DNA of 40,357 bases from an uncultured bacterium (GCA_937870675.1 CALMZN010000002.1:1-40357), one strand, 5' to 3'; counted from the first letter of the stretch, positions 16,078-40,357 are shown. Notes: generated by a model not told the origin, from the sequence alone. Translations and numbers: made by a program.

Positions 16078-19000
16078 ATGAATTATCTGCACATTGTTCA
16101 TCAACACAAAAACAGAATAATTTTTTTCATTTTTGTCTTCTTATTTGTTATTTTTGGTAGTTTTTTGTTTGTGGGGGTTGAGAGAGCTAGTGCCGCGACA
16201 TATTATGTTTCCACAACAGGTACCGATGATGCTAGCCATGGCACCGGCACTGGTACTGATGCTTGGCTGACCCTAGATTATGCTTTGACTGGTTCACGGG
16301 TTGCCATGGGAGACACTATTAATATTGAAGCTGGGACTTATAGCTCTTTTTATGGAGCTGACACTTATATTAGCCCCACTATAAACACCGCTAGTGGTAG
16401 CGGACCGGTTATAATACAAGCTTATCCTACCGATGCCGTGGTCACTCTTGATATGCCAGTTAATACTTCCGGCAGTTATGCTTTCCTTTTTCTAAACTCA
16501 ACTAGATGGGGTGAGTTTACTTTTAAACATATTAATTTTACCAATTCCAACGCAGTTGCTTCCCAATTATTTTGGATATACGGTCACAACCTAACTCTTG
16601 AGGATTGCCAAATAACCTTTAACGCCGCCGTGACCAGAACACAAATTTATATAAGCACTGATACTGAAGATGCTAATTTGATATTTAGAAGAACTAAGAT
16701 CATCAATGGTCCATCGGGTAGCAGATACATAATTAGCAACGGTAAGGTCGGCGCAAATGTTACTCTTGAAAGTAGTTTATTTTATGATCAAATTTATTAT
16801 ATCCTAGCCCTAGGAGCTAGAACAAATGTGACTGTGACTAATTCTACTTTTTTCACCAGTTATGCAAAATTTTATATGCCCGCTGAAGCGAGTGGATCAA
16901 TTTTCCATATCAAAAATAATATTTTTTATGCCAATACAGACACCGACTATCGGCCGTTTGTAACGGTTGACGCTATATCAGCTGAAATAATAGCAAATCC
17001 AGACAATTGGGATGTTACAAATAATATTTGGTACTGGTCTAAAGCACCGGTAGCTGAAGTAATACAATATCAGTACTTTATAGGTGGACATACCCACATT
17101 GACCAGGTTGATAGCACCAATCATTATATAAATCCTCAATTTACAGCAACCTCTACTGATGATTATACTATACAAGTTGGATCTGATATCTGTGGTCATG
17201 GATTGCAGGCCAGCTTACCAGCCGACGGTGATGTCACTGGGGTAGCTTGGACTGGTAATGATATTGGCGCTTATAAGTGCCCTAGCTCAAGTACTGGCGT
17301 TACTTTATTAGATAAAGTTGCCTTTGTTGGTGATTCTATAATGCTTCAAGGTACAGTCGCTTCAACTTTTACTGACCAAACTGGCCTAGATGTTGTTGCC
17401 GTCGCTGATACCGCAATATCTGGCGCACCAATGCAAAAAATATTTGATTCTATTGATGCTGTAATGATAAATAGTAGCCCCAGTACTGTATTTTTATCAA
17501 TTGGCATCAATAATTTAGCCTTGCAAACACCAGCCCTAGCCACCAACACCGAATATGCTAATTATATTTTAGAGATTATGGAAAAAATTGAAGATTGGGG
17601 AGCAACACCGATCTGGTTGGGCATAGGGACACTTAATAATTACGGTGGGTTGCCTGACACTCCTATTCCTATAATCAACGCCGCTGTTGAAGCTGGTTGC
17701 GTCTCTCATGGCTGGACATGTGACGCCTATTATGATCAAATGACTTTCAACTCTAGCTGGCAATCCGCCTCACCTAATGGATATTATGACACCAATGGCG
17801 ATGTCCATCCCAATACTGCTGGCTATCAGCTCATCGGAGAATTTGCTGAATATTTATATTATACTCACCACACTATGGGTACTGATGAAATAGATGTCGG
17901 AGCCGGAGCTAGAGTCTACTCTAATGGTAAATTTAGAGATCAAGGCGTTGTTTCTGGGATTACGGCTGATTTGACAGTAACACCAGCGTGGGGTGGCTTT
18001 ACAACTGGAGATTACTCTTATTGGTTGGATGTCGGTATTGATTCGTGGTTGACTAGTGGCACATATAATAAACAATGGACTGCTTCTTCTACTTTAGCCA
18101 CAACTACGATTTATACAATTGGTGATTTAGCCCCATCAAAATATTATAAATTTAAATTAGATGGAGCTGATTATACCAGTATTACTGGTGACACTTGCGC
18201 CAGTGGTATTTGTCTTTCAGATTCTTTGGGTAACCTTACTTTTACTTATGCGGGTGGTTATTCTACCCACACTTTTGCTTTGGAACAAAATACTAGTGCG
18301 CCAACTAATATTGGATTTACATCAATTACTGCTGATTCTACAAGTCAGCTAACAATTTTGGCAGACACAGCTGTTGACTCTGATCCGGGATTATCAGCAA
18401 CTCCATATTGGTTTGATGAAACAACAGGTGGTTCAGGCGCAACAGATTCTTCGGATTGGCAATCTTCAGCCACGTATATAGATAGTGGCTTATCAACTAA
18501 TACTCAGTATACTTATAGAGTCAAGGCCCGAGATGGCAATACCAACGAATCCGACTATTCTACTACCTTATCAAAATATACTCTAGCCCCTACACCCAGC
18601 AATCTATCAGCCACTGCCAGCCGAACTAGCATAAGTCTATCGGTCAGCGCTTTAGATAATGCCAGTTCTGGTTCATCGGGTTATTATTTTTCTCGCAATG
18701 ACGGTACTAACTCCGGCTGGATACAAACTAATACTTGGGATGATACAAGTTTATCTTGTGGCACTTCATATACCTATTCAGTAAAGTATCGAAATGGTGA
18801 TGGGACAGAAACTAGCGTAAATACCATCACTAAATCAACAAGTGGTTGTAGTGGTGGTGGTAGCTACTATATACCCTCCGTTGGTCTGGGGAGTACGGAT
18901 TTTTATTTTAAAATTGGTGAGACCAAAGAAATTACTGGCCTAGGAACCAATGGAATAAATATTTTGGTCTATGTTCATTCATCATTGATATTTAGTTTGG

Positions 19001-19725
19001 TAAATTCAAATACAAAATATAATTTGGAAGTTTTGGATTTAGATACAGCTACTGGTCTAATAAAAATAAAATTAGCGGACAGAATTTTTTATTTATCACC
19101 TGGTAAAAGTCAAAAATTTGACCTTGATGGGGGTGGAAATTTTGATTTGCAATTAGTTTATAATAAATTAAAAGTTAATCAAATTGATTTAACTCTGCTC
19201 ACATTAGATCAGCCAATCCCGACTTCTGACTTATTAGCAAATGGTAGTCTAGTCAAAACACCGAACGATCCGGCGGTTTATCTGGTAGAAAACGGGATGA
19301 AGAGGCACATAATCAATGAGGATGTTTTTATAGCCCAAGGATTTTCTTGGTCTGATATTATAGATGTGCCGAATTTGGACAATTATCCTTCTGGAGAAAT
19401 AATAAATATCACTAGTAATAAAACCAACAACCCATCAGTGATAAATAATTATGTATTTACAGTTAATTTGCCATATGGTAGTGCTAGTGATGATGTGCTA
19501 CGGCTACAAAAATTTTTAAATGCCAATGGATTTATTGTGGCTAATACTGGGTTCGGCTCACCTGGTCATGAAACTAAAATATTCGGCAGAGCTACCAGAG
19601 CGGCCTTAATAAAATTTCAAAATAAATATAAAAAACAAATTCTTGAACCCTTGGGTCTAAGCAATGGCACTGGAATTTTTGGTCCAGCCACTAGAGAATT
19701 TATAAAAAATAATTTTAGTTATTAG
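16078..19725 (+). CDS. Large secreted multidomain surface protein: beta-helix, SGNH-type hydrolase, FN3-like repeats, C-terminal peptidoglycan-binding domain
   Basis: N-terminal TM/signal; pectate-lyase-like repeats; SGNH blocks VAFVGDSI, FLSIGINN, DVHPNTAGYQL; FN3-like segments; C-terminal GSASDDVLRLQKFLNANGF...IFGRATRAALIKFQ. Confidence 0.8.
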   Translation: MNYLHIVHQHKNRIIFFIFVFLFVIFGSFLFVGVERASAATYYVSTTGTDDASHGTGTGTDAWLTLDYALTGSRVAMGDTINIEAGTYSSFYGADTYISPTINTASGSGPVIIQAYPTDAVVTLDMPVNTSGSYAFLFLNSTRWGEFTFKHINFTNSNAVASQLFWIYGHNLTLEDCQITFNAAVTRTQIYISTDTEDANLIFRRTKIINGPSGSRYIISNGKVGANVTLESSLFYDQIYYILALGARTNVTVTNSTFFTSYAKFYMPAEASGSIFHIKNNIFYANTDTDYRPFVTVDAISAEIIANPDNWDVTNNIWYWSKAPVAEVIQYQYFIGGHTHIDQVDSTNHYINPQFTATSTDDYTIQVGSDICGHGLQASLPADGDVTGVAWTGNDIGAYKCPSSSTGVTLLDKVAFVGDSIMLQGTVASTFTDQTGLDVVAVADTAISGAPMQKIFDSIDAVMINSSPSTVFLSIGINNLALQTPALATNTEYANYILEIMEKIEDWGATPIWLGIGTLNNYGGLPDTPIPIINAAVEAGCVSHGWTCDAYYDQMTFNSSWQSASPNGYYDTNGDVHPNTAGYQLIGEFAEYLYYTHHTMGTDEIDVGAGARVYSNGKFRDQGVVSGITADLTVTPAWGGFTTGDYSYWLDVGIDSWLTSGTYNKQWTASSTLATTTIYTIGDLAPSKYYKFKLDGADYTSITGDTCASGICLSDSLGNLTFTYAGGYSTHTFALEQNTSAPTNIGFTSITADSTSQLTILADTAVDSDPGLSATPYWFDETTGGSGATDSSDWQSSATYIDSGLSTNTQYTYRVKARDGNTNESDYSTTLSKYTLAPTPSNLSATASRTSISLSVSALDNASSGSSGYYFSRNDGTNSGWIQTNTWDDTSLSCGTSYTYSVKYRNGDGTETSVNTITKSTSGCSGGGSYYIPSVGLGSTDFYFKIGETKEITGLGTNGINILVYVHSSLIFSLVNSNTKYNLEVLDLDTATGLIKIKLADRIFYLSPGKSQKFDLDGGGNFDLQLVYNKLKVNQIDLTLLTLDQPIPTSDLLANGSLVKTPNDPAVYLVENGMKRHIINEDVFIAQGFSWSDIIDVPNLDNYPSGEIINITSNKTNNPSVINNYVFTVNLPYGSASDDVLRLQKFLNANGFIVANTGFGSPGHETKIFGRATRAALIKFQNKYKKQILEPLGLSNGTGIFGPATREFIKNNFSY

Positions 19726-23682: not shown

Positions 23683-25212
23683 ATGGCGAAATTTTTTAAG
23701 ATACCATACACCAAAAAAATTTTTACCTTTTTCCTAATTTTTGTTTGGGTTTTTTCATCTTGGCCGAAAATTATTGATTTTCCGCCAACAGTAAAAGAGG
23801 CCTCCGCCGCTAGTGGCGATGTCATACTTTTGTGGGACACGGCCAATGGTTCAGTCCCTTCGGGCTGGACTTGTATTTCTTGCACTGGTGGTGATGCTTT
23901 TTACGGTGTTTTCCCCAGAGCCGCTTCCAGCTATGGCGCGTCCACGGCTGGCTCTGATACTCATACGCACACTTTAACTTATTCTAGCGCTACCCAAGGC
24001 GCCAATGGTGATGCCTTGGGTGAACTTACTGGTAATAGAGCGTCTGTCAACACGCATACGCATACTTGGGGCAATATTACTTCTGGTAGTGGCGATGTCA
24101 GGCCAAGTTATAAAAATTTGAATTTTATTTATGCCAACAATCCTTCATCAATTCCCGCCAATGTTATTGCTGTGTTTGATAGCACTTTGCCGTCTGGCTG
24201 GACAAGATACAGCGCTTTGGACAGCATATATTTGCGTGGCAATGCTGATAATGCGACCGGAGGCGGAGCAACGCATTATCATGCTATTGCTAGTGGCTCC
24301 ATAACCTCAAGCGGTCACAGCAATATTTTGACTGACTCTGGCAATGCTCGCAGTGCTTGTAATCAAACGGCTGGCCACCTTCTTCCTTCGGCCACTACAA
24401 ATCTTGATAATAACAACAATGCCCCTCCCTATGTTCAGGTAATTTTTGCCTATAATTCCAGCGGTAGCGCTATTTCTCTTTCTTCAACTTCGGCTACAGG
24501 CATGATTGCTTTTTTCAATGCCACGCCACCTTCGGGCTGGGACACTATTTCAGATGTCTCGCCTTGGAATGGTAATTTTTTGATGGGTTATTCTAGCTAT
24601 GGCTCAACCGGCGGCTCAAGCGCTGATCATAATCATGGTGGGTCCAAGAGTTTTACATCAGCCGCCTGCGCGTCAAGCGCGAATGGTCTTGGTCCAACTG
24701 GCACTTATACTGGCGCATTAGAAACTCATTCTCATAGCGTCACTTACACGATTGATTCTCAAGCATCACTGCCGCTTTATCGCGATGTTATTTTAGCCAA
24801 AAAAGAAGCGCCAACATTTAGCATTAGCATATCCACCAATGGCGCAGTAGCTTTTGGAACACTGGCTCTGGAGCAGACCCAAGACAATACAGTTACCGGA
24901 GTCAATGATATAGAGATTGTGAGCGTTGATGTTGGCCCGGTAGATTTGGATATCAAAAGCACAGTTTTTACAGAGGGAGGTAATACTTGGACACTTGGCT
25001 CCAGTAATGGTTCCAATCAAGTCAAATGGGAGTTTGCCACCTCAACTAATAATTGGGTGACTATGGCCGTGGCCAATTCAAATTATGAGATGGATCTCAA
25101 TGTCGCCCAGTCAGCTACTAGAAATGTATATTTGCGCATTACTATGCCAACAGCGACCAATTCTTACAACCAATATAGCTCAACAGTCACCATTACGGCC
25201 TCATCTCCGTAG
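23683..25212 (+). CDS. Secreted protein with three phage tail collar-like repeats and a C-terminal beta module
   Basis: Signal/TM N-terminus; repeats PSGWTC..., PSGWTR..., PSGWDT..., each with a His-rich motif (DTHTHTL, HYHA, DHNHGG); C-terminal YSSTVTITASSP. Confidence 0.65.
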   Translation: MAKFFKIPYTKKIFTFFLIFVWVFSSWPKIIDFPPTVKEASAASGDVILLWDTANGSVPSGWTCISCTGGDAFYGVFPRAASSYGASTAGSDTHTHTLTYSSATQGANGDALGELTGNRASVNTHTHTWGNITSGSGDVRPSYKNLNFIYANNPSSIPANVIAVFDSTLPSGWTRYSALDSIYLRGNADNATGGGATHYHAIASGSITSSGHSNILTDSGNARSACNQTAGHLLPSATTNLDNNNNAPPYVQVIFAYNSSGSAISLSSTSATGMIAFFNATPPSGWDTISDVSPWNGNFLMGYSSYGSTGGSSADHNHGGSKSFTSAACASSANGLGPTGTYTGALETHSHSVTYTIDSQASLPLYRDVILAKKEAPTFSISISTNGAVAFGTLALEQTQDNTVTGVNDIEIVSVDVGPVDLDIKSTVFTEGGNTWTLGSSNGSNQVKWEFATSTNNWVTMAVANSNYEMDLNVAQSATRNVYLRITMPTATNSYNQYSSTVTITASSP

Positions 25213-25238
25213 GGGGGTTTGGTGTTTTTTTAAATTTT

Positions 25239-25248
25239 GTGCTATAAT
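25239..25248 (+). promoter_or_regulatory. Putative extended -10 promoter
   Basis: aaattttGTGCTATAATat, same 16-nt word as at about 23660. Confidence 0.5.
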
Positions 25249-25337
25249 ATTATCATGTAATTTTAATATATATATAAATATAAAAATAAAAAATATTAAT
25301 ATATATAAAATAATAAATAAAAACTAAATGTAAACGT

Positions 25338-25856
25338 ATGAAAGAAACTATTTTATCAACATTGATTGTCATTGTTTTTGGTTTTTTGGTGGTAGTTGGT
25401 GTCAGAGCCGCTGACAATGCGGATGTCACAGCCACTGTCACAGTCCAAAACATTGCTATGACCTTGAGCCAGTCAACATTTGACTATGGCACTATGTCAA
25501 GCAATACCACCTCTACCACAGTGCCTCTTTGGGCGGGGGCAGGCATAGTAGCCACCAACACTGGCAATGTCAACGAAGATTTTGACATCAACAGCGCTGA
25601 CACTGCTGCTTGGACGCTAGCGACAGCCACATCAACCGCTGATATTTACGCTCATCGTTTTTGCAATGACACGGATAATGACTGCACAACACCTTGGACT
25701 AATTACACAGCCATGACTACATCGCCAGGAGCGTTGGACACGGGAATAGCAGCATCGGGCACAGTTGCTTTTCAATTGCAGATACACACTCCCAACCCTA
25801 GCACAGTTTTTACTGAGCAGAGCTCTAGCGTGACAGTGACGGCTAGCGCCAGCTAA
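25338..25856 (+). CDS. Small secreted beta-rich surface protein (172 aa)
   Basis: Signal peptide (MKETILSTLIVIVFGFLVVVGVRAAD); C-terminal QSSSVTVTASAS matches the C-terminal module of the 23683 ORF. Confidence 0.65.
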   Translation: MKETILSTLIVIVFGFLVVVGVRAADNADVTATVTVQNIAMTLSQSTFDYGTMSSNTTSTTVPLWAGAGIVATNTGNVNEDFDINSADTAAWTLATATSTADIYAHRFCNDTDNDCTTPWTNYTAMTTSPGALDTGIAASGTVAFQLQIHTPNPSTVFTEQSSSVTVTASAS

Positions 25857-25889
25857 GTGAATATTTAAATTTTGTTTTTATAACCGGTT

Positions 25890-26492
25890 ATGAAAAAATC
25901 TACCTTAGCGGTTGTGGCTATTTGTTTATTTTTACCTTTTTGGGCTTTGGCCAAGATTGGCGTGGGGGTGGGGACTGGTAAAATAGTGGTTGATCAGCCG
26001 ATGAAACCCGGTTTGATTTACACTTTACCACCTTTAGTGGTTCTAAATACCGGCGATGAGGCCTCAGATTACGGCGTCACTATTCAACATCGTGAAAATC
26101 AAGAGCAGATGAAACCAGCTAAGGAATGGTTTAGTTTTGAGCCCAGTAGTTTTTATCTGAATCCCGGTGAATCAAAAGTTGTTCAAATCAAATTAACTTT
26201 GCCCATAAAAGGGGCTAGACCGGGAGATTATTTTGCTTTTTTACAGGCCTATCCAAAGCAAAAAGCTGGTGTCTCGGGTACTAGTGTCAATATAGCCGCC
26301 GCCGCTAAATTGTATTTTACGATAGTGCCTAGTAATTTTTTTGCCGGAATTTATTATAGGATTGTTTCACTTTTGACGCTTTATTCTCCTTGGGGGTACA
26401 TAGTTTTGGTAGTCATTGGAGCTACTTTGTTGCTTGGCATACTGCGCCGTTTCATTTCTTTTAATATCGGACTTAGCGTCAAGAAAAAATAA
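25890..26492 (+). CDS. DUF916 (WxLIP)-like secreted/membrane protein
   Basis: Signal peptide; GKIVVDQPMKPGLIYTLPPLVVLNTGDEASDYGVTIQ...FYLNPGESKVVQIKLTLP..GARPGDYFAFL; C-terminal TM segment. Confidence 0.6.
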   Translation: MKKSTLAVVAICLFLPFWALAKIGVGVGTGKIVVDQPMKPGLIYTLPPLVVLNTGDEASDYGVTIQHRENQEQMKPAKEWFSFEPSSFYLNPGESKVVQIKLTLPIKGARPGDYFAFLQAYPKQKAGVSGTSVNIAAAAKLYFTIVPSNFFAGIYYRIVSLLTLYSPWGYIVLVVIGATLLLGILRRFISFNIGLSVKKK

Positions 26493-26506
26493 GATTGTCA
26501 TAATGA

Positions 26507-27562
26507 ATGAAAAAACATGATTTGATGGTTAATTTATTTTTTTTATTAACAATAGTTTTGGCTATTGTTTTTTTTATTTTTTCTAAAGAAATAGTTTTTA
26601 GCAGTGATAGTGTGGTGACGACAGTGCAAATATCGGTTTGTGGTAATGGCGTCAAAGAGGGCGGCGAAGATTGCGATACTAATGATTTTGGGGGAGTATC
26701 TTGCACTTCTTTGGGCTACACCAGCGGTACTTTGACCTGTGATGCGGCTTGCGATTACGTCACTAGCGCTTGTATATACACGGCACCAGTAATTATTGGC
26801 GGTGGTGGCGGTGGTAGCACTGTATTGTTGCCAACAGTGACAGGAGTAAGCTTTTCAGGCAAAGCTTATCCATCAAGTGAAGTCACAGTTTTAAAAGATG
26901 GCCAAATTATTTCTATGACCATGGCTGGTCCGGATGCTAATTTTTTAGTCAGTTTATCCAATATTTCAGCGGGTAATTATATTTTTGCTTTATATACTGA
27001 GGATTCTCAGGGTCTGCGTTCTTCTTTGTTTACTTTTCAGGTCTATGTCACTTTTGGCGCTATTAGCACGGTTAGTGGTATTTTTCTTTCACCGACAATC
27101 ACTGCGGACAAAGTCGAAGTTAAAAAAGGCGATAATTTGGCAATCTTTGGTCAAACAACGCCCAATTCTCAAGTGAGTATCCTAGTCAACTCTTCTCAAG
27201 ATTTTTTTGCTAGCGCCAGTACGGACGAATCAGGCGCTTACCTTTATAATTTTGATACTAGTGTTTTGGAAGAAGGGGACCATAGTACTAAGTCAAAAGT
27301 AACCCTCAATAGCGCTACTAGCAACTATAGCACAGCCGTTGGTTTTTTGGTGGGTGATAAAAACGTCAGCCGACAACCTGGCGCTGATTGTGGTAATCTG
27401 CGAGGGGACATAAATTGCGACGGCAAGGTAAATTTGGTTGATTTTTCCATTGCCGCTTATTGGTATCGGCGGACAAATCCACCAATTCGCGTTGATATTA
27501 ATGGCGATGGGCAGGTGAGTTTGGTAGATTTTAGTATTATGGCTTACAATTGGACTGGTTAA
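26507..27562 (+). CDS. Secreted protein with CGNGxxEGGEDCD Cys-rich module, Ig-like domains and C-terminal type I dockerin
   Basis: VCGNGVKEGGEDCDTND; C-terminal duplicated calcium loops DINCDGKVNLVDFSI and DINGDGQVSLVDFSI. Confidence 0.85.
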   Translation: MKKHDLMVNLFFLLTIVLAIVFFIFSKEIVFSSDSVVTTVQISVCGNGVKEGGEDCDTNDFGGVSCTSLGYTSGTLTCDAACDYVTSACIYTAPVIIGGGGGGSTVLLPTVTGVSFSGKAYPSSEVTVLKDGQIISMTMAGPDANFLVSLSNISAGNYIFALYTEDSQGLRSSLFTFQVYVTFGAISTVSGIFLSPTITADKVEVKKGDNLAIFGQTTPNSQVSILVNSSQDFFASASTDESGAYLYNFDTSVLEEGDHSTKSKVTLNSATSNYSTAVGFLVGDKNVSRQPGADCGNLRGDINCDGKVNLVDFSIAAYWYRRTNPPIRVDINGDGQVSLVDFSIMAYNWTG

Positions 27563-28449
27563 TGTTTATGATAAAAGGAGCAGTAAAAATATTATTGTTG
27601 TTGGGTCTGATCTGGCCCTTGAGCGGACAAGCGGCTTTGTTTTATTTTGAAGATAAGCAAAACAGCGCCGTGGTTGGCCAAGATACGAGCATTACTCTAA
27701 AAATTGATACTCAAGGTCAGCTGATAAACGCTATTGAGGGTGATGTGCTTTTGCCGTCGGATTTACAATTAGTGGATATTTTTGATAATGGCTCTATAAT
27801 AAGTTTTTGGGTGGAAAAACCGGAAAACAAAAATAATATAGTCCACTTTTCTGGTATTACTCCGGGCGGTTTTATGGGGCAGGGAATTTTGTTCAAAATA
27901 TTGGTCAAGGCAGGTTCGTCTGGGTCAAGACAAATAACTTTGGGTAATTTGTCAGCTTATTTGAGTGATGGACAAGGCACGAACGTTATTGTGAGCAGTC
28001 AGTCCGCGCAAATGGATTTTATTATAAGTGAAGAGGCGCCGGCAATTGAAATAAAAATAAATGACAATGAACGGCCCGAAGATTTTACACCTATCATTAG
28101 TCGTTTGGATCAGATTGAGCCGGGTATTTATTTTTTGATTTTTGCTACTCAAGATAAGGGGTCAGGAATTGACTATTATGAAGTGCGAGAAGGATGGTAT
28201 AATTACCAACTAGCCCTTAGCCCTTATCGTCTGAAGAATCAAGAATTGAATCAAGATATTTTTGTCAAAGCCGTGGATAAGGCCGGCAATGAACGAGTCG
28301 TTAAGGTCTTGGCTCTATACGATAAGGCGTGGTATGAAAATTTTTGGTTTTATGTTATAATGATAAGCGTAGTTATTTCGTTGTTTTTGGGTAAAAAAAT
28401 AAAATTATTACGGCATCATGGCCGATCGACAAACAAAAATAAAAGTTAA
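27562..28449 (+). CDS. Cohesin-domain membrane-anchored protein
   Basis: Signal peptide, cohesin-like domain (VVGQDTSITLKIDTQGQLINAIEGDVLLPSDLQLVDI...LSDGQGTNVIV), C-terminal TM; start overlaps the previous stop (TAATG). Confidence 0.78.
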   Translation: MFMIKGAVKILLLLGLIWPLSGQAALFYFEDKQNSAVVGQDTSITLKIDTQGQLINAIEGDVLLPSDLQLVDIFDNGSIISFWVEKPENKNNIVHFSGITPGGFMGQGILFKILVKAGSSGSRQITLGNLSAYLSDGQGTNVIVSSQSAQMDFIISEEAPAIEIKINDNERPEDFTPIISRLDQIEPGIYFLIFATQDKGSGIDYYEVREGWYNYQLALSPYRLKNQELNQDIFVKAVDKAGNERVVKVLALYDKAWYENFWFYVIMISVVISLFLGKKIKLLRHHGRSTNKNKS

Positions 28450-30184
28450 AAATAAAATCAATAAAAAAACGTGGTTAGGCGCCGTAGTTTTGGCGTTATT
28501 TTTTATTTTTGGTCATCAGGTTAAGGCGCAAGCGGCCAGCCTTTATTTTAGTCCGTCAGCTGGATCTTATACAGTAGGGAAAACTTTTAGCACGGCTGTT
28601 TATGTTTCGTCAGCCAGTCAAGCAATCAATGCTGTCTCGGGTGTAATCCGTTTTCCCAGCGATCTGTTGGAGGTGACTAGTGTTTCCAAGTCCGGATCAG
28701 TATTGACTTTTTGGGTGCAAGAGCCATCGTATTCCAATAGTAATGGCGAGATAAATTTTGAAGGCATAGTGATGAACCCGGGTTTTACCGGAACTGGTGG
28801 CAAGATTATAACCATCACTTTCAAAACCAAGACCGCTGGTGTCGCCAATTTGAGTTTGGGCAGTGGTTCGGTTTTGGCCAATGACGGTCAGGGGACCAAT
28901 ATTATTAATTCTTTGGGTACAGCCAGATTTAATATTGAAGCTAAGCAAGTGGGACCAGCCGCTCCTGAAGGGGAAACGCCGTCAGAATCAGTCGGCACGC
29001 CACCTGCCCCCAAGATTGAATCCAGCACTCATCCTGATCCCAATGCTTGGTACGCCAACAATAACCCAGAATTTTCTTGGGTCTTGGCCAAAGATATTAC
29101 TTCGGCCAGCTTATTGGTCAGCAATAAACCCCAAGATGTCCCCAGCATCAACTATACACCAGCGATTAGTAGCAAAAGTTTGGCCGGCATTGATGACGGC
29201 GCTTGGTATTTACACATACGTTTGCGCAACAAATTGGGCTGGGGCGGAACGACGCACTATCGTTTTCAAATTGATCGAACCAATCCGGAATATTTAAATA
29301 TCAAAATGTTGGATCGGGCAAATTTGACCGAGGCGAGCTTAAAATTTATTTTTGATGCCTTTGATGCTGCTTCTGGCATTGAAAAATATGAAATCCAAAT
29401 GGATAACAATGATACCATCAAATGGATTGATGATGGCAGTCATGTCTATACCACCGAATCACTAGTTCCAGGCCGGCACACAATGATAGTCAAGGCCATT
29501 GATCGCGCTGGTAATTTTGTGGCTAATTTTGTGGAATTCAACATTGAAGCCATTAATGCGCCGGTGATTACTTATTATCCCACCAGTTTGACGAGCAAGG
29601 ATATATTTTTGGTCAAAGGCGAGACTTACACCAATGCCAAAGTTTTTATTTCTATTCGTCGCGATCACGATGAGCCACAAAAATTTGAAACCCAAGCTGA
29701 TGAAAACGGCAAGTTCACTTTTGTGGCGGATGATAAATTATCGGACGGCATTTATCACTTCTGGGCAGAGGCAATGGATAGTAAGGGGGCCCGCAGTCTC
29801 CCCACGCAACAATACCGCTTTATGGTCGAGCAGCCAAAATTTATCCGCATCGGTTCCCTTGCTATCAGTTTCTTGTCAGTAATAATTTCTTTGATCGCCC
29901 TACTCTTGGGCTTAGTAATGTTTTGGGGTTATTCAATGAGAAAAGCTAAGACCATCAGTCGTCGCGTGAAAAAAGAGACCGTAGAAGCTAGCACGGTTTT
30001 GCATCAAGAATTTCATAAGTTAAAGGACAATGTCAAGAAGCAGTTGACTTCCATAGAGTGCGCTGGCAAAAAACGCGCTCTAACCAAAGAGGAGGCGAAG
30101 CTATTAAAGAAATTAAGCGCAGATTTGACGGTGGCCGAAGATAAAGTGGCCAAAGAAATTTCTGATATCAAAAAACAAGTATAG
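28418..30184 (+). CDS. Cohesin-domain membrane-anchored protein with Ig/FN3-like repeats and cytoplasmic coiled-coil tail
   Basis: LYFSPSAGSYTVGKTFSTAVYVSSASQAINAVSGVIRFPSDLLEVTSV...; TM near LAISFLSVIISLIALLLGLVMFW; charged C-terminus; overlaps the upstream ORF by 32 nt. Confidence 0.8.
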   Translation: MADRQTKIKVKNKINKKTWLGAVVLALFFIFGHQVKAQAASLYFSPSAGSYTVGKTFSTAVYVSSASQAINAVSGVIRFPSDLLEVTSVSKSGSVLTFWVQEPSYSNSNGEINFEGIVMNPGFTGTGGKIITITFKTKTAGVANLSLGSGSVLANDGQGTNIINSLGTARFNIEAKQVGPAAPEGETPSESVGTPPAPKIESSTHPDPNAWYANNNPEFSWVLAKDITSASLLVSNKPQDVPSINYTPAISSKSLAGIDDGAWYLHIRLRNKLGWGGTTHYRFQIDRTNPEYLNIKMLDRANLTEASLKFIFDAFDAASGIEKYEIQMDNNDTIKWIDDGSHVYTTESLVPGRHTMIVKAIDRAGNFVANFVEFNIEAINAPVITYYPTSLTSKDIFLVKGETYTNAKVFISIRRDHDEPQKFETQADENGKFTFVADDKLSDGIYHFWAEAMDSKGARSLPTQQYRFMVEQPKFIRIGSLAISFLSVIISLIALLLGLVMFWGYSMRKAKTISRRVKKETVEASTVLHQEFHKLKDNVKKQLTSIECAGKKRALTKEEAKLLKKLSADLTVAEDKVAKEISDIKKQV

Positions 30185-30210
30185 TTTTTAATTGCTAAAT
30201 AAATTTATAA

Positions 30211-30250
30211 CAGCCCTGCACCGCCTGGTACAGGGCTGGCTTGTTTTTTT
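30211..30250. terminator. Rho-independent terminator between convergent genes
   Basis: cagccctg-caccgcctggta-cagggctg followed by gcttgttttttt. Confidence 0.75.
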
Positions 30251-30259
30251 GGTCAAATT

Positions 30260-30871
30260 TTACTGACAGCTAGTTGTCGGCAGGCCATTAACTTGGCTGA
30301 CCCAGAAAGAAGTTGAATGACTGCAGTAGCCACTAAAAGGATCATTGCCTGGGTAGGCGTATTTTCTGACTTCAAAATGCAAGTGCGGACCAGAGGAGTT
30401 GCCAGATGAACCGCTTTTGGCAATGCCTGCTCCGCATAGCACGGACATTGGCCAGACAGCAGTATCTAGCTGTAGGTGGGCGTAGAGTGTCACCCAGCCA
30501 ATACCGTCGGTCAAAATTCCTTCATGATCAATGCGAACATTGTTGCCATAGCCACCGCCACAAGTACTGCCCAAGTAGCCGTAGGTCGGACAGCCGTTAT
30601 AGCGGTAGTAGAGCCCGCCGACTGCTGAAGCATAGACAGGCGTACCCACTGCCGTGGCTAGGTCAGTGCCGGCATGTCCTTCATAAGTGCCGCTAGTGAC
30701 GCAGGTGTATTTTCTTAGACCTAGGCCAGCTTGGTTGTCATAAAAAGAGCTAAATACCGGTGTGGCGCTGATTGGTCGGCGGAATTTTGGCTCGGCCTTA
30801 GCTTGCGGGGCCAAAAACCAGAACATGGCCAATAGCAAAAATAAGCTCACGCTTTTCTTTAAAATTTTCAT
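30260..30871 (-). CDS. M23 family metallopeptidase (LytM-like)
   Basis: Signal peptide; GHAGTDLATAVGTPVYAS, LYAHLQ, SSGPHLHFEVR. Confidence 0.9.
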   Translation of the reverse strand: MKILKKSVSLFLLLAMFWFLAPQAKAEPKFRRPISATPVFSSFYDNQAGLGLRKYTCVTSGTYEGHAGTDLATAVGTPVYASAVGGLYYRYNGCPTYGYLGSTCGGGYGNNVRIDHEGILTDGIGWVTLYAHLQLDTAVWPMSVLCGAGIAKSGSSGNSSGPHLHFEVRKYAYPGNDPFSGYCSHSTSFWVSQVNGLPTTSCQ

Positions 30872-30875
30872 AAGT

Positions 30876-31871
30876 TTATTTTTTTATAATTTTACCAGTT
30901 AAATCGACATTGATACTTTGGACGCTAGTTTGCTGGCTGTTGTTTAATATTACATTTACAACTTGGCCATTTTGACTCCAAGTCGCTTCTTGTCCATAGG
31001 TCAAAAATTTGCCAGTCAGCTGGTTTTTTTCGGCGTTGAATTGGTTGAGCCAGATAGCGTGGTCGGACTCATAGAGCAACATAGTGCCATCAGGCGACCA
31101 AATTGGTTTTTCAGAGGGCATAGGCAGGCCATTATCTTTGATGTAGTAGAGCCCAAAATTAGACAGCTGTTTTTTGTTTTGGCCGTCACGGTCAATGACA
31201 AAATGCGAGCTAGTGCCTTGGTCATTGGTAGAAAAGAAAAGCACCTTTTGTCCGTCAGGAGTCCAGAGGGGGAGCCAGTCCTCCCACCTGTTGGTTATTC
31301 TTACTTCTTGTCTAGTATCCAGATCCAAGACAGTCAGACCGAGCGCTTGGTCAGTGTAAGGCGCTATCCAGTCGGGGTTTAATTTTTGATAAACCATAAA
31401 CCGCCCGTCTAACGACAAATCAGGCGAAAAAACTTTGTCCATGATTTTTTCTTGGCTTGACTGATTGATATCATGGCGCCAGAGATTTTGCTGGGCATCA
31501 GTGAAATAGATTAGCGTATTTTTGGGATCCAAGTCAGCCCAGCGCACCAAATCATTGGATATTTTTTGCTCACTCTTGTCTAGTAAGTTGATCAAAAATA
31601 AATTAGTTCCGCCAGTGCTTTCGCTATTAGCAACAACTTCTCCTTCCCAGGCCTTGCCCACTAGAGCATAGTGGCTGTTGTAGTCAAACAGGATTTTTAA
31701 ATCAGCTTGGTTGGTAAATTGTTTTTTTTCTAGGGCTTGGCTGGTTGAATAAAGGTTGCCGTTTAGGATAGTCAATTTTTCGGCTTGGGCTTTTTGGCTT
31801 GGGCGAATGAAATACGCTCCTAGCAGTAGGGTCAAGCTCAAGACCAATGGTATTATTAATTTTAGCTTCAT
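30876..31871 (-). CDS. TolB-like/WD40-type beta-propeller secreted protein
   Basis: Repeats such as PLWTPDGQKVLFFSTNDQ and PIWSPDGTMLLYESDH; N-terminal signal. Confidence 0.75.
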   Translation of the reverse strand: MKLKLIIPLVLSLTLLLGAYFIRPSQKAQAEKLTILNGNLYSTSQALEKKQFTNQADLKILFDYNSHYALVGKAWEGEVVANSESTGGTNLFLINLLDKSEQKISNDLVRWADLDPKNTLIYFTDAQQNLWRHDINQSSQEKIMDKVFSPDLSLDGRFMVYQKLNPDWIAPYTDQALGLTVLDLDTRQEVRITNRWEDWLPLWTPDGQKVLFFSTNDQGTSSHFVIDRDGQNKKQLSNFGLYYIKDNGLPMPSEKPIWSPDGTMLLYESDHAIWLNQFNAEKNQLTGKFLTYGQEATWSQNGQVVNVILNNSQQTSVQSINVDLTGKIIKK

Positions 31872-32403: not shown

Positions 32404-33363
32404 ATGGATAATACAAAAAACAATTCAGCGAAGTTTGCGTTTCTTTATTTATTATCACTGGTGGCTTTGGGCTTTGTGTCCGTCAACGTTGGGCAGATTA
32501 TTTTTCAATTGATCAACAAATACATTGTTGATATTTTGAGTCAGAACAACGCGGCTTTTTCTTCGGATATTTTAAAGTTTGCCATTGCCTCATTGGTGAT
32601 TGCCACACCAACTTATTATTTTTGTAATAAGTTTATTTATGGCAGTTTGTACAAAGGCGAGCTAGACAAAGAATCAGGCGTGCGCAAGTGGCTGACTTAT
32701 TTGATTATTTTTATCGCCTTCTTGGTGATGATTGGTTCTTTGATTGCTATCTTGGTTAATTTCTTAAACGGCGCTCTGACCACCCAGATTATCCTCAAAT
32801 CCTTGACCACTCTGGTTATTTCTGGCATTGTTTTTTCCTTTTATTTTTATGATATTAGACGGGAAAAAACTGCTGATTATAAAGATAAAATTATAAAAAT
32901 ATACTTTTTTGCTTCACTGGCAGTGATTGTCCTTACTTTTGTGGCTTCGCTGTTTATAGTAGAGTCCCCTCAAGTAGCTAGAAACAGGCAAATTGACCAA
33001 AGAGTGTTGAGTAATTTTAACGAGCTAGACAATAATTTGAGTAATTATTATCAAATCTATAAAAAATTACCAGCAGATTTTTCTGCCCTAAAAGCAGAGT
33101 ATAAATATATTAGCGATGATTTATTAAAAAATCCTAAGACCCAAGAAATGTTCACATATCAAGTCAAGGGAGACAGGGAGTATGAATTGTGCGCTACTTT
33201 TTTGACTGACGCTTCGGCTAATATTCAAAACAAAGATATGGCTTATTATTATGATACGCGCTGGCCACATGGTATTGGCTATCAATGTTTGACTCAAAAA
33301 GTGCAGATCTTCAACAAAGACGGCTCGTTAGTAGAACCAGTGCCAGCAGTGCCATTCAGATAA
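32404..33363 (+). CDS. DUF5671-like membrane protein
   Basis: N-terminal AFLYLLSLVALGFVSVNVGQIIFQLINKYI and several TM segments; soluble C-terminal region. Confidence 0.6.
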   Translation: MDNTKNNSAKFAFLYLLSLVALGFVSVNVGQIIFQLINKYIVDILSQNNAAFSSDILKFAIASLVIATPTYYFCNKFIYGSLYKGELDKESGVRKWLTYLIIFIAFLVMIGSLIAILVNFLNGALTTQIILKSLTTLVISGIVFSFYFYDIRREKTADYKDKIIKIYFFASLAVIVLTFVASLFIVESPQVARNRQIDQRVLSNFNELDNNLSNYYQIYKKLPADFSALKAEYKYISDDLLKNPKTQEMFTYQVKGDREYELCATFLTDASANIQNKDMAYYYDTRWPHGIGYQCLTQKVQIFNKDGSLVEPVPAVPFR

Positions 33364-33508
33364 TAATGGCTAAATATTTTACTAGTTATCTAAAAATACC
33401 AATTGGTCTGTTGGCAATTACTGCCACGGACCAATTTGTTATAGTAGTAGATTTTGTGACTCACAAAAAGGTTTTGACTAAAAATCGCATTTCGCTTAAT
33501 ATAAGCTT

Positions 33509-35296
33509 ATGCAGAACCCAGTGGAAGAAATAAAAGCCAAGTTGGATGTAGCCGATATTATCTCTACCTATATTACTTTGAGTTCAACTGGCTCCAATCT
33601 CAAAGCGCGCTGTCCCTTTCACAATGAAAAAACAGCCAGTTTTATGGTTTCTCGGGAAAAGCAAATCTGGCATTGTTTTGGCTGTGGCAAGGGCGGGGAT
33701 ATTTTTACCTTTATTCAGGAATATGAGGGCTTGAGTTTTTCGGAAGCTATCAAGCTGTTGGCTGAGAAAGCCAATGTTTCTTTGGCCGGCTATCAAACAT
33801 TACCCAAAGAAAATTTTAATCTTTTGTTTGAAATAAATCATTTGATTTCGGAAAAATATCAAGCCAATCTTTTTGATAAAAGTGAAACTAGCGCCAAAGT
33901 TTTGGACTATCTTTTGTCGCGGGGCTTGACTATAGACAGTATAAAAAAATGGAATCTTGGTTTGAGTACTGAGTCCTGGGATGAAGCTTTACAGTATTTG
34001 AAAGCCAAGAAATTTTCCGATACTGATATTTTTCAAGCTGGCATATCAGTCAAAAAAAAAGATGGCAGTGGCTATGTGGATCGCTTTCGCAAGCGACTGA
34101 TGTTTCCCATATTTGACACGGCTGGGCGAGTAGTGGCTTTTACTTCGCGTACTTTGCAGGGCATTGTCTATCAGGATGAAGATTTTGGCGGTAAGTATAT
34201 CAATAGCCCGCAGACCAATATCTATGACAAAAGCAAAATACTATATGGCTGGCATTTAGCCAAAGCCACGATCAAGCAAAAAGATTATTTGATTATTGTG
34301 GAAGGCAATCTTGACGCTATTTTGAGCCAGCAAGCTGGCACCACCAATACCGTGGCCGTATCTGGCACAGCCCTGACCATTGATCACTTGAAGCTAATCA
34401 AGCGTTATACTAAGAATGTCATCTTGGCTTTTGATGGTGATATGGCTGGCTCCAATGCCGCTTTGCGTAGTATCACTTTGGCTTGGGCTCAAGAAATGAA
34501 TATGAAAATTTTGGTCTTGCCGACAAACCAAGATCCAGCTGATATAGTAAAGAGCGACAAAAATTTATGGTTGAAACTAGTGCGTGATTCTATCCAAGTG
34601 ATGGATTATTATTTTCAGCGGATTTTATCTGGCGTGGACTTGAATCGCGCTGATCACAAAAAAATAGCGGTGCAAAAATTATTGCCGATTATAAAATATC
34701 TAAAAAGCGCGGTTGAGCAATCTCATTATTTGCAACTATTAGCTGATAAATTACATTTGCCCTTGGATATTTTGCAGAGCGATCTCAAACAGGTTAGCAG
34801 TTTCTTGGAAAATGTTCGGCCCGAAAAAAAGGTCATAGCTATCAAAAAACCAAGCGTTAGTTTTTTAAGCGAAGAATTATTGGGTATTGTATTTTTTCGA
34901 AACAATTATCTAGAGCGTCTAGTCAATGAGCTGGAGCCAGAAATGATGGAAGAGAGTTTATTGGATCTTTACAAAAAGGTAATAATCTATTATACTAAGC
35001 AACGTAATTTAGATAATTTTATTGATTCGGCTGATTTGGAAGCCGAAACAAAACAGCAGTATATTCGTCTATTAATGTCGGCCGAGCAGAACATGGCTGA
35101 TTTATCAGGTCAAGAGCTAGACAGCAATTTCAATGTTTCCTTGGAAAGATTGAAAAGCAATAGATTCCAAGAGCGCCGTCAGCTTTTGATCGAACAATTG
35201 CGTCAGGCCGAGCTAAAAAATGACGCCATAGCTCAAGATCAAATTACTCATCAAATTAATTTATTAAATAAGGAAATAACTAAACTACAGCGCTAA
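33509..35296 (+). CDS. dnaG: DNA primase
   Basis: [34 protein letters not shown] zinc motif; [16 protein letters not shown] and [11 protein letters not shown]. Confidence 0.96.
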
Positions 35297-36594
35297 TGAC
35301 GACTGTAAAAAAGGCCAAAAGCCACAAAAAATTGAATAAAAAATCTAAAACTGCTGTCAAACACAGCAGACCCAAGCCGCACAAGGCAAAAGCAACGCCG
35401 AAAAAAAAATCGGCGAAAAAAAATTTAGGCCTCAAGAGGACTAAGCCCGCAAAAAAATTAGTCACTAAAAAAAGTAAAGTAATAGTCAAAGTAAAAAGCC
35501 CCAAAGCTGAGTTAAGCGATGAGGTTATTCAAGCTTTGTTAAAAAAAACCCACTCCCGAGGATTTGTCACTCAGGAGGAAATTTTGCGCACTTTTACTGA
35601 TGTGGAGGACTACGTTGGTAAGTACGAAGAATTTTTGGATAAATTAGAGGACTTAGCCATTCAGGTGATTTCCACGGAAGGTAATATTTTGGATTCTGGC
35701 ATCAAAGGCGAGGATATTGTGTCCAAATCAGGCATCCAAGCTGATGAAAAGCGCGGTGATCTGACGGACATTGCCGCCGACTCTATTCAGATGTATTTGC
35801 GGGAGATTGGCAAAGTGACTCTGCTGGTGCAAGAAGAAGAAATGATGCTGGCCAAGCGCAAAGAAAAGGGCGACTTGGAAGCCAAGAAAAAATTGATTGA
35901 GTCCAACTTGAGGTTGGTGGTCAGTATTGCCAAAAAATTCACTGGCCGCTCTTTGACTTTACTAGATTTGATTCAAGAAGGAAATATTGGTTTGTTTCGG
36001 GCGGTAGAAAAATTTGATTATCGCAAGGGTTTCAAATTTTCTACTTATGCTACTTGGTGGATTAGGCAAGCCATCACTCGCGCTCTAGCTGACCAATCAC
36101 GCACTATCCGTATTCCAGTGCACATGGTCGAAACCATCAATCGTTTTAATCAAATTGAGCGTCGTCTGGTGCAGGAGCTGGGTCGTGATCCACTACCTGA
36201 GGAGATTGCCGTGGAAATGGGTGAGGATATTGATAAGATTAGACAGATTATCAAGATTTCCCAAGAGACCGTGTCCCTAGAGGCCTCAGTTGGCGATGAT
36301 GACGACGACAGCACTTTGGGTGATTTTATTGAGGATGAAAAAAATATCAGTCCAGATCGGGTGGCGGCCATGAAATTATTAAGCGATCATGTTCGTCATG
36401 TGATTTGCGACTTGACTCCGCGTGAGCAAAAAATTCTGGAAATGCGTTTTGGTTTGACCGATGGCGTGGCGCATACTTTGGAAGAGGTGGGTCAGGAATT
36501 TGGAGTGACCAGAGAGCGCATCAGGCAGATTGAAGCCAAAGCTCTAGAGCGCATCAAAAAACACGAAGATATGCGCAAACTTAGAGATTATTAA
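35296..36594 (+). CDS. rpoD: RNA polymerase primary sigma factor (sigma70) with Lys-rich N-terminal extension
   Basis: Region 2 ([45 protein letters not shown]) and region 4 ([24 protein letters not shown]); start overlaps dnaG stop (TAATG). Confidence 0.97.
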
Positions 36595-39101: not shown

Positions 39102-40357
39102 ATGAAACATAAATTTTATAAGAAAATAGCACTAAATAGAATTTTGTCGTTACTCGTAGGTTTATTAATAACAACTGGGACTTTTTTCGCAGTCGGCCTA
39201 GAGCCGGTCTTGGCCAGCGAGACGATTTATCTGGGCGATGGAGGTTGGAGTGTGCCAGTCGGGACATGGGATCCTGTTTCTCGGATCGCAGTTTTGACAC
39301 AGGATACATCAAGTTCAATTGTAATAACATCAAATTACATTGTTCTTGATGGCAATGGCTACACAATCTCTGGAGATGGTACGGGCAATGGAGTATATAC
39401 CGAGAGCAAGCATGATATTACCATCAGGAATTTGCTCATTGTTGGTAAACAGAATGGCGTTAAACTGTATAAAACGCATCATAGCATCGTTGAAAATAAC
39501 ACTATATCCAATAATACCCAGCTAGGCATATATCTCTATGAAGCCACACTCGTTTCTGTCATAAATAATAAAACCTTCAGCAATGGTTTGGCAGGAATCT
39601 CGGTTCGAGCATACTCTACCTACAACACCATTGAGAATAACGAGTCCTATCTCAATGAAACTGGTATAAAATTTGAAGGTGGATTTAACAATATTGTCCG
39701 AAACAACGAGATACGAGATAATACAGCTTATGGATTATTAATTACAAATGATTTAGCTCTTGTTGGCGGGGTACTAGTGACGCTTGTGACAGATGATAAT
39801 CAAATCTACAACAATAATTTTGTCAATAACTGGGCTCAAGCCTATGTATATACTTCGTTAGTCGGCGACAATAATGTATTTAATCTTGACTTGCCTATCG
39901 GTGGCAACTACTGGAGCAACTGGACTTCGCCAGATGAGAACAATGACGGGATTGTTGATAGCCCTTATGTGCATGTGCCTTATGGTGTGCAGGATAATCT
40001 ACCATGGACAACTCCAAATGGCTGGCTAAACCTGCCACTTCCAAATCAAGCGCCAATCGCTGACGCTGGTGGCCCATATTCCACCATTCTTGGCAATGCG
40101 GTCACCTGTGAGGGTGGTAGCTCTTATGATCCTGATGCTACTTCCGGTGATAGTATCGTCAGCTACAACTGGGATATCGTGGAAACTTACTACGTCCTAG
40201 CTGGTGTAACACCAACGCTTAGCATTGAAGAAATTAATGCCCTAGGGATAGGAACCTATTCAGTAAACTTAACAGTAACTGATTCGTTTGGAGCTACACA
40301 TACCGATACTACCACTCTTGAGATATTGCCACTTCCAACTACTGTCTTGGAAGATGC
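39102..40357 (+). CDS. Secreted NosD-like right-handed beta-helix protein with PKD domain (truncated by window end)
   Basis: Open to window end, no stop. MKHKFYKKIALNRILSLLVGLLITTGTFFAVG...; NosD signature NYWSNWTSPDENNDGIVDSPY; PKD-like APIADAGGPYSTILGNAVTCEGGSSYDPDA. Confidence 0.85.
   Translation, partial: MKHKFYKKIALNRILSLLVGLLITTGTFFAVGLEPVLASETIYLGDGGWSVPVGTWDPVSRIAVLTQDTSSSIVITSNYIVLDGNGYTISGDGTGNGVYTESKHDITIRNLLIVGKQNGVKLYKTHHSIVENNTISNNTQLGIYLYEATLVSVINNKTFSNGLAGISVRAYSTYNTIENNESYLNETGIKFEGGFNNIVRNNEIRDNTAYGLLITNDLALVGGVLVTLVTDDNQIYNNNFVNNWAQAYVYTSLVGDNNVFNLDLPIGGNYWSNWTSPDENNDGIVDSPYVHVPYGVQDNLPWTTPNGWLNLPLPNQAPIADAGGPYSTILGNAVTCEGGSSYDPDATSGDSIVSYNWDIVETYYVLAGVTPTLSIEEINALGIGTYSVNLTVTDSFGATHTDTTTLEILPLPTTVLED

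What the first reader, a model, noticed from the sequence alone, without database searches (positions are those of the whole stretch)
23683..30871. Wider surface-assembly island: collar-like, beta-rich, DUF916-like, dockerin and cohesin proteins facing an M23 peptidase
Five consecutive plus-strand ORFs are predicted secreted or membrane-anchored, with the two-gene M23/TolB-like unit convergent. The order small beta-rich secreted protein -> DUF916-like protein with C-terminal TM recalls the WxL/WxLIP surface systems of Firmicutes, here next to a dockerin/cohesin set. As one unit this could be an undescribed cell-surface appendage or attachment system, relevant for a host-associated lineage. The functional link is inference from co-localisation.
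Basis: partly seen in the sequence, partly recalled or inferred. Interest (0 to 1): 0.75.

Follow-up and report, generated by a model that had tools for sequence, protein, structure and literature searches.

The report
Cohesin–dockerin surface operon of Patescibacteria
Six neighbouring genes in a tiny uncultivated bacterium encode a conserved set of cell-surface proteins that look built to snap together (dockerin into cohesin) and to hold out an interchangeable sticky head, and the same set recurs across many Patescibacteria, where how cells grip their hosts is largely unknown.

Summary
Six (not five) plus-strand genes at 23683–30184 form a tight operon of secreted or membrane proteins: a 'large' protein (variable phage-collar-like head plus C-terminal beta domain), a 'small' protein made only of that domain, a DUF916-like membrane protein, a protein ending in a type I dockerin, and two membrane-anchored cohesin proteins. 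Single-sequence profile searches miss DUF916 and cohesin, but family profiles find both: the DUF916 family's best solved structure is the WxL-interacting protein EfmWxLIP1 (E=3.6e-7), and cohesin PF00963 passes its cut-off in orthologues. Gene order is conserved: in 61 of 61 assessable relatives, small cohesin and dockerin genes lie upstream of the large cohesin gene, and 37 of 54 also have the WxLIP-like gene. The window genome has exactly one dockerin and two cohesins, so this is a closed pair, not a cellulosome. The beta domain occurs exactly twice per genome (one large, one small), matching the minimal WxL cluster, although it is not a WxL domain by sequence. The M23/TolB-like pair is a separate, clade-restricted unit. 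Best reading: an undescribed WxLIP-like plus cohesin–dockerin attachment complex, widespread in Patescibacteria. Its function is inferred, not shown.

The parts
23683..25212 (+). Gene 1, 'large' surface protein (509 aa): signal/TM, three collar-like P-S-G-W repeats with HxH motifs (variable head), C-terminal ~136-aa beta domain (24784-25209)
   Evidence: the C-terminal domain is homologous to gene 2; the head is interchangeable among relatives
25338..25856 (+). Gene 2, 'small' protein (172 aa): signal peptide plus one beta domain (25416-25853) with a conserved N-terminal strand VTATVT
25890..26492 (+). Gene 3, short WxLIP-like protein (200 aa): signal, one Ig-like DUF916-type domain (about residues 23-147), C-terminal TM and basic tail; no DUF3324/HBD
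26507..27562 (+). Gene 4, dockerin protein (351 aa): N-terminal TM/signal, Cys-rich segment, Gly linker, two Big_6 Ig-like domains, C-terminal dockerin (27404-27541) ending ...NWTG
27562..28449 (+). Gene 5, small cohesin protein (295 aa from ATG): signal, cohesin (27589-28050), OmpL47-like beta module, C-terminal TM, basic cytoplasmic tail
28418..30184 (+). Gene 6, large cohesin protein (588 aa): signal/TM, cohesin (residues 39-175), two Ig-like modules, Big_13, TM (474-500), about 85-aa charged cytoplasmic tail
30211..30249 (.). Inverted repeat (12-bp arms, one mismatch) followed by a T-run between the convergent units; probable terminator
   Evidence: Read directly from the sequence printed; not listed by the consensus scan
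30260..30871 (-). M23 peptidase, secreted (203 aa); optional neighbour, not core
   Evidence: conserved convergent position only in genera g1 and g8
30876..31871 (-). TolB-like/PD40 beta-propeller protein (331 aa), paired with M23; optional neighbour

Best explanation
The operon encodes a membrane-anchored surface attachment complex made of two joined modules. Display module: the large protein carries a variable receptor-binding head (here collar-like, with HxH motifs). Its C-terminal beta domain, together with the small protein made of the same domain, is held at the cell surface by the WxLIP-like membrane protein, as WxL and WxLIP proteins are proposed to do in Firmicutes. Anchor module: the dockerin protein locks by its calcium-binding C-terminal dockerin into the cohesin of the large cohesin protein (and/or the small one). 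Both cohesin proteins span the cell's own membrane, so the assembly is linked to the membrane and, through the tail of the large cohesin protein, to the cytoplasm. Because the head is swapped between species while the frame is kept, the likely job is adhesion to a particular surface or host cell. Shown here: gene order, domain families, one-dockerin/two-cohesin and one-large/one-small stoichiometry, conservation. Inferred: dockerin-cohesin binding, WxLIP-beta-domain binding, contact between the two modules, calcium dependence, adhesion.
For: Gene order is conserved in family members. In 79 loci found only by similarity to the large cohesin protein, 61/61 assessable ones have the small cohesin gene directly upstream, all 61 have a dockerin gene upstream (56 within 2.5 kb), and 37/54 have a WxLIP-like gene. 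Median gaps are 9, 7 and -23 bp. Across 287 phylum-sampled genomes the dockerin and cohesin proteins co-occur in 40 (Fisher p=4e-21, not corrected for phylogeny), in 38 of them within 5 kb. The DUF916-slot family profile hits EfmWxLIP1 structures at E=3.6e-7, next best 0.04; PF06030 is over cut-off in the same slot of G044; short and long forms match by hhalign (97.4%, 1e-11). Cohesin PF00963 is over cut-off in four of ten orthologues tested; the best PDB match of the small-cohesin family is a scaffoldin cohesin (E=0.0012). The window genome has one dockerin and two cohesins. The beta domain occurs exactly twice, one large and one small, in 7/7 genomes. Dockerin (67%) and large-protein cohesin (55%) are the most conserved parts of their proteins; 68/77 dockerin proteins end in WTG. 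Heads differ: collar, tail fibre, laminin-G, Gly-rich.
Against: No binding, expression or localisation data. The window's own DUF916 and cohesin domains are below detection singly. The beta domain has no profile match to WxL, and P0003 lacks the second WxLIP domain. 17 of 54 assessable loci have the triad without a detectable WxLIP gene, and WxLIP-like proteins occur in many genomes without the triad (131/287), so the two modules are separable and may not touch. Head swapping could reflect phage or immune pressure rather than host choice.
Confidence: 0.6

Rival explanations
1. A donor-strand fibre (pilus-like) in a single-membrane cell: P0003 is a membrane-tethered PapD-like chaperone, P0002 the fibre subunit whose conserved N-terminal VTATVT strand completes its neighbour, and P0001 the two-domain tip adhesin that lacks that strand. 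The dockerin-cohesin triad is the base that ties the fibre to the membrane.
For: The P0003 model's best folds are pilus chaperones FaeE, Caf1M, DraB and FimC (E about 2e-5). The P0002 model's best folds are FimA pilins (E about 2e-3). PapD_N touches 2/33 WxLIP-family members. The archaic pilin domain SCPU gives weak full-length matches to small proteins of other clades and to one A9 row. The small-protein rows but none of the large-protein rows in A9 show the V/I-x-A/G-T-V-T strand. PMC10599100 reports a prediction that a DUF916 strand inserts into WxL.
Against: The P0002 model is poor (pLDDT 56). Foldseek TM-scores are low (0.3-0.4) and the Ig fold is common. Profiles of the small proteins hit no pilin in the PDB, and small-protein families of different clades do not match each other. 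No usher was sought.
Confidence: 0.2
2. A surface-coat or S-layer anchoring system: the proteins tile the cell surface and the triad ties the coat to the membrane, with no dedicated receptor binding.
For: Patescibacteria are thought to be monoderm with surface coats (own knowledge). All six proteins are secreted, and the anchor domains are the most conserved.
Against: The large protein has a head that changes in type between genera, resembling phage tail fibres and lectins, unexpected for a lattice protein; the small protein is a single short domain.
Confidence: 0.12
3. A minimal cellulosome-like enzyme scaffold, in which the cohesins collect dockerin-bearing hydrolases for polymer breakdown.
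For: Dockerin and cohesin families are those of cellulosomes.
Against: Only one dockerin was found in the whole genome, and it is on a non-enzymatic Ig-like protein of the same operon. Same-family genomes with the full cluster have one to three dockerin matches.
Confidence: 0.04
4. Loose neighbourhood of unrelated secreted proteins at a surface-protein hot spot, kept together by chromosomal position only.
For: In several family members the island sits in one chromosomal slot between ppdK and a TM gene-dnaG-rpoD, and its flanks hold other surface proteins.
Against: The same order recurs in many other lineages without that slot, with overlapping genes and fixed copy numbers.
Confidence: 0.04

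Closest known systems
WxL/WxLIP (Csc) surface clusters of Firmicutes (PMC10599100, PMC9772566)
   Same: One large protein with a variable head and C-terminal beta domain, one small protein with the domain alone, one DUF916-type (WxLIP) membrane protein with C-terminal TM, in one cluster; WxLIP homology shown to EfmWxLIP1
   Different: Beta domain is not WxL by profile and has one W-x-L motif; P0003 lacks the DUF3324/HBD half although related clusters keep it; no LPxTG protein noticed; instead a dockerin protein and two cohesin proteins; found in Patescibacteria, where the library searched holds no report of it
Cellulosome cohesin-dockerin type I pairs (e.g. scaffoldin cohesin 5aoz)
   Same: Dockerin with two calcium-loop repeats at the C-terminus (PF00404); cohesin domain after the signal peptide (PF00963 in orthologues)
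   Different: One dockerin and two cohesins in the genome, all in one operon; no enzyme; cohesins sit on membrane-spanning proteins; near-invariant WTG terminus
Chaperone-usher pili (FaeE/Caf1M/FimC; FimA; SCPU archaic pilins)
   Same: Predicted fold of P0003 resembles the PapD-like chaperone domain; adhesin/subunit/chaperone division of labour
   Different: No sequence membership; the chaperone-like protein is membrane-anchored; no usher known; low-confidence model for P0002
Essential dockerin protein SEML1_0315 of Southlakia epibiontica (PMC10633639)
   Same: A dockerin-bearing envelope protein in a Patescibacterium, reported as essential
   Different: Saccharibacteria; no cohesin partner or cluster is described there; relation to this operon not tested

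Membership tests
WxL/WxLIP cluster | WxLIP PGBD (DUF916, PF06030) | tested here: met
   Met at family level: A7 profile to EfmWxLIP1 E=3.6e-7; PF06030 matches 14/33 members, over cut-off in G044's same-slot gene; short vs long form hhalign 97.4%. P0003 alone is below threshold
WxL/WxLIP cluster | WxLIP HBD (DUF3324) following PGBD | tested here: not met
   P0003 has only about 125 aa of ectodomain and matches positions 1-156 of the 303-position family model; the long forms in other clades do carry the second half
WxL/WxLIP cluster | WxL domain (PF13731, two W-x-L motifs) in large and small proteins | tested here: not met
   No PF13731 match in P0001, P0002 or 24 related domains; one conserved W-x-L only
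WxL/WxLIP cluster | One large, one small and one WxLIP protein in one cluster | tested here: met
   Beta domain exactly twice per genome, one large and one small, next to P0003 orthologues in 7/7 genomes
WxL/WxLIP cluster | Peptidoglycan and host binding | not testable with these tools
   Needs binding assays
Type I dockerin | PF00404 above cut-off with two calcium loops | tested here: met
   P0004 26.0 vs 22.9 bits; both D-x-N-x-D...D loops conserved
Cohesin | PF00963 above cut-off / cohesin fold | tested here: met
   Met for orthologues: L055 24.3, L060 28.5, L067 24.7 (small) and L059 24.2 (large) vs 24.1 bits; P0005 and P0006 themselves not matched singly; families linked by hhalign 100%
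Cellulosome | Several dockerin-bearing enzymes per scaffold | tested here: not met
   One dockerin in the genome, on P0004
Chaperone-usher pilus | PapD-like chaperone family membership | tested here: not met
   P0003 has no PapD_N match; 2/33 relatives weakly; fold resemblance only
Chaperone-usher pilus | Outer-membrane usher | not tested
   No usher search was run
M23 peptidase as part of the unit | Conserved linkage to the operon | tested here: inconclusive
   Orthologue in 2 other genomes of 53 searched, both of genus g8, each time convergent beside the cohesin gene; absent from the other clusters

The most novel reading that the evidence does not exclude
A donor-strand-assembled surface fibre of single-membrane, host-dependent bacteria: a membrane-tethered DUF916/WxLIP-type chaperone, a small self-complementing subunit and an interchangeable tip adhesin, fixed to the membrane by a private dockerin-cohesin clamp. 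This would unite WxL/WxLIP and pilus chaperone biology.
Probability: 0.15. Interest if true: 0.92.

Novelty: new variant of a known kind. Interest (0 to 1): 0.73.

Why it matters
All cultivated Patescibacteria live on other microbes, and how they recognise and hold them is largely open beyond type IV pili (PMC12206443, abstract). This operon gives a concrete candidate with clear partners to test. It also extends WxLIP-type proteins from Firmicutes to nearly half of the sampled Patescibacteria genomes (131 of 287), and suggests cohesin–dockerin pairs used as a one-to-few structural clamp rather than as enzyme scaffolds.

Tried and rejected
Single-sequence Pfam and NCBIfam scans for DUF916, WxL and cohesin: no match. 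Early PDB search with the eight short WxLIP sequences gave only antibody noise; the broader 33-member profile resolved it. P0002 structure: low confidence, fold hits not relied on. Beta domain vs PDB: nothing. Small proteins of other clades vs PDB: nothing useful, and no profile link among small-protein families. Window collar head vs PDB and PHROGs directly: nothing; supported only through the G013 orthologue. Large-cohesin tail matched ATP synthase subunit b in the PDB: rejected as coiled-coil composition. Promoter/terminator consensus scan at or only modestly above shuffle level. The idea that the extra N-terminal part of the longer Magasanik-type dockerin proteins is a fused WxLIP: not seen on reading. 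Cellulosome reading rejected.

Full report
Observation. The window lies in an 829-kb, 84-contig genome whose family includes Candidatus Komeilibacteria (G007, contig length 534,444, equals L121, MHKS01000005; the family assignment is inferred from this match). Between 23683 and 30184 there are six same-strand genes, not five. Gaps are 125, 33 and 14 bp, then a TAATG overlap at 27560-27564 and a 32-bp overlap, typical of one operon. Every protein has an N-terminal signal or TM segment; genes 3, 5 and 6 also have a C-terminal TM followed by a basic tail. The M23 and TolB-like genes are convergent and separated from gene 6 by an inverted repeat with a T-run.

Domain identity. In the window proteins themselves only the dockerin, Big_6, Big_13, M23 and PD40 calls pass curated cut-offs. 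For gene 3, an alignment of 33 proteins, nearly all from the same slot (A7), finds EfmWxLIP1, the solved WxL-interacting protein of Enterococcus faecium, at E=3.6e-7, with the next PDB entry at 0.04. 14 of the 33 match PF06030, the same-slot gene of G044 passes the PF06030 cut-off, and short and long forms match by profile comparison. P0003 is a short form, with one Ig-like domain and TM; the AlphaFold model has pLDDT 76. For genes 5 and 6, PF00963 passes its cut-off in three small-protein and one large-protein orthologues, the small-cohesin family's best PDB match is a scaffoldin cohesin, and the two protein families share the domain.

The beta domain. The C-terminus of gene 1 and the whole mature gene 2 are the same domain. 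A search of 53 relatives finds it in 7 genomes, exactly twice in each: once at the end of a large protein and once alone in a small one, always in this cluster. This is the one-large/one-small/one-WxLIP arrangement reported as the minimal and commonest WxL cluster (PMC9772566, PMC10599100). The domain is nevertheless not WxL by profile and keeps one W-x-L motif, not two. In other clades the small slot is filled by other beta-rich families that are not detectably related.

The head. The N-terminal part of gene 1 has three P-S-G-W repeats and five HxH motifs, as in phage collar/tail-fibre domains. Its G013 counterpart matches phage tail collar families at 1e-30 and 2e-11, G004's matches a tail fibre family, G009's carries laminin-G and L159's a Gly-rich domain. 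So the frame is constant and the head is exchangeable.

Conservation. The order large, small, WxLIP, dockerin, cohesin, cohesin is seen in several family members (G006, G007, G009 and G013 entire, with the G006 WxLIP gene interrupted by a stop; G001, G004 and G010 split or cut by contig ends). A blind scan with the large-cohesin family returned 292 relatives, of which 79 loci were kept, almost all Parcubacteria-type MAGs under many candidate-phylum names. In all 61 loci with at least 2.5 kb upstream, the small cohesin gene is directly upstream; a dockerin gene is upstream in all 61 (56 within 2.5 kb, five with one or more genes between). A WxLIP-like gene is upstream in 37 of 54 with at least 4.5 kb. 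In 287 genomes drawn across the phylum, the dockerin protein occurs in 51, the cohesin proteins in 67 and both in 40 (Fisher p=4e-21, not corrected for phylogeny), 38 of them within 5 kb. WxLIP-like proteins occur in 131. Thus the triad is the core, and the WxLIP module is a frequent but separable partner. Magasanikbacteria-type clusters have the triad with a different upstream set.

Partner logic. The window genome has one dockerin and two cohesins, all in this operon. The dockerin is the most conserved part of gene 4 (67% mean pairwise identity) and the cohesin the most conserved part of gene 6 (55%), while the rest of each protein is lower. 68 of 77 dockerin proteins end in W-T-G, and two of the others are cut by contig ends. 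These facts fit a dedicated clamp. Binding itself is not shown.

Mechanism. I commit to a membrane-anchored adhesion complex with a swappable head (confidence 0.6). The main rival adds donor-strand fibre assembly: the P0003 model resembles pilus chaperones, the small protein has a conserved N-terminal strand that the large one lacks, and weak SCPU matches appear in other clades. The P0002 model is too poor and sequence support too thin to prefer it.

M23/TolB-like pair. The specific M23 orthologue was found in only two other genomes, both of genus g8, each time convergent beside the large cohesin gene. It is a clade-specific neighbour, not core.

Known or new. The library searched holds no paper joining WxL or cohesin terms with Patescibacteria for such a system; the library is partial, so this is not proof of novelty. 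An essential dockerin protein has been reported in Southlakia epibiontica (PMC10633639), which makes a functional role of Patescibacterial dockerins plausible. I rate it a new variant of a known kind: WxLIP-type clusters joined to a private cohesin–dockerin clamp, in a new phylum.

Limits. The 79 loci are the closest relatives and not independent lineages; MAG contigs are short; ORF calling was mechanical; no expression or binding data were available.

Noticed in passing
window 11472-13862 and 32404-36594: The island sits in a conserved chromosomal slot: ppdK upstream, a TM gene-dnaG-rpoD downstream, in several genomes of the family, suggesting vertical inheritance with variable content.
   Followed up: partly
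phylum sample: WxLIP-like proteins occur in 131 of 287 sampled Patescibacteria genomes, mostly without the cohesin triad: a broader distribution of the DUF916/WxLIP family for which no report was found.
   Followed up: no
L134, L141, L160, L178 (mostly Magasanikbacteria loci): The dockerin-cohesin triad is preceded by a conserved 130-160 aa membrane protein (APTIATV.DPEKL...) and, in three of the four, a roughly 2000-aa repetitive surface protein instead of WxLIP; an alternative display module.
   Followed up: partly
window 16078-19725 +: 1215-aa secreted protein: beta-helix-like N-terminus, GDSL lipase, fn3, C-terminal peptidoglycan-binding domain.
   Followed up: no
window 39102-40355 +: Start of a secreted NosD-like beta-helix plus PKD-like protein running off the contig end.
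   Followed up: no
G006:C8:5954-6553 (L005) and G010:C139:7958-8539 (L008): The P0003 orthologue is interrupted by an in-frame stop in two relatives (TAA, TGA); real loss or assembly error not decided.
   Followed up: no
L060, L062: Genus g8 genomes keep cohesin genes with the convergent M23/TolB pair; L060 has two large cohesin genes and a long dockerin protein but no detectable WxLIP or beta-domain genes.
   Followed up: partly
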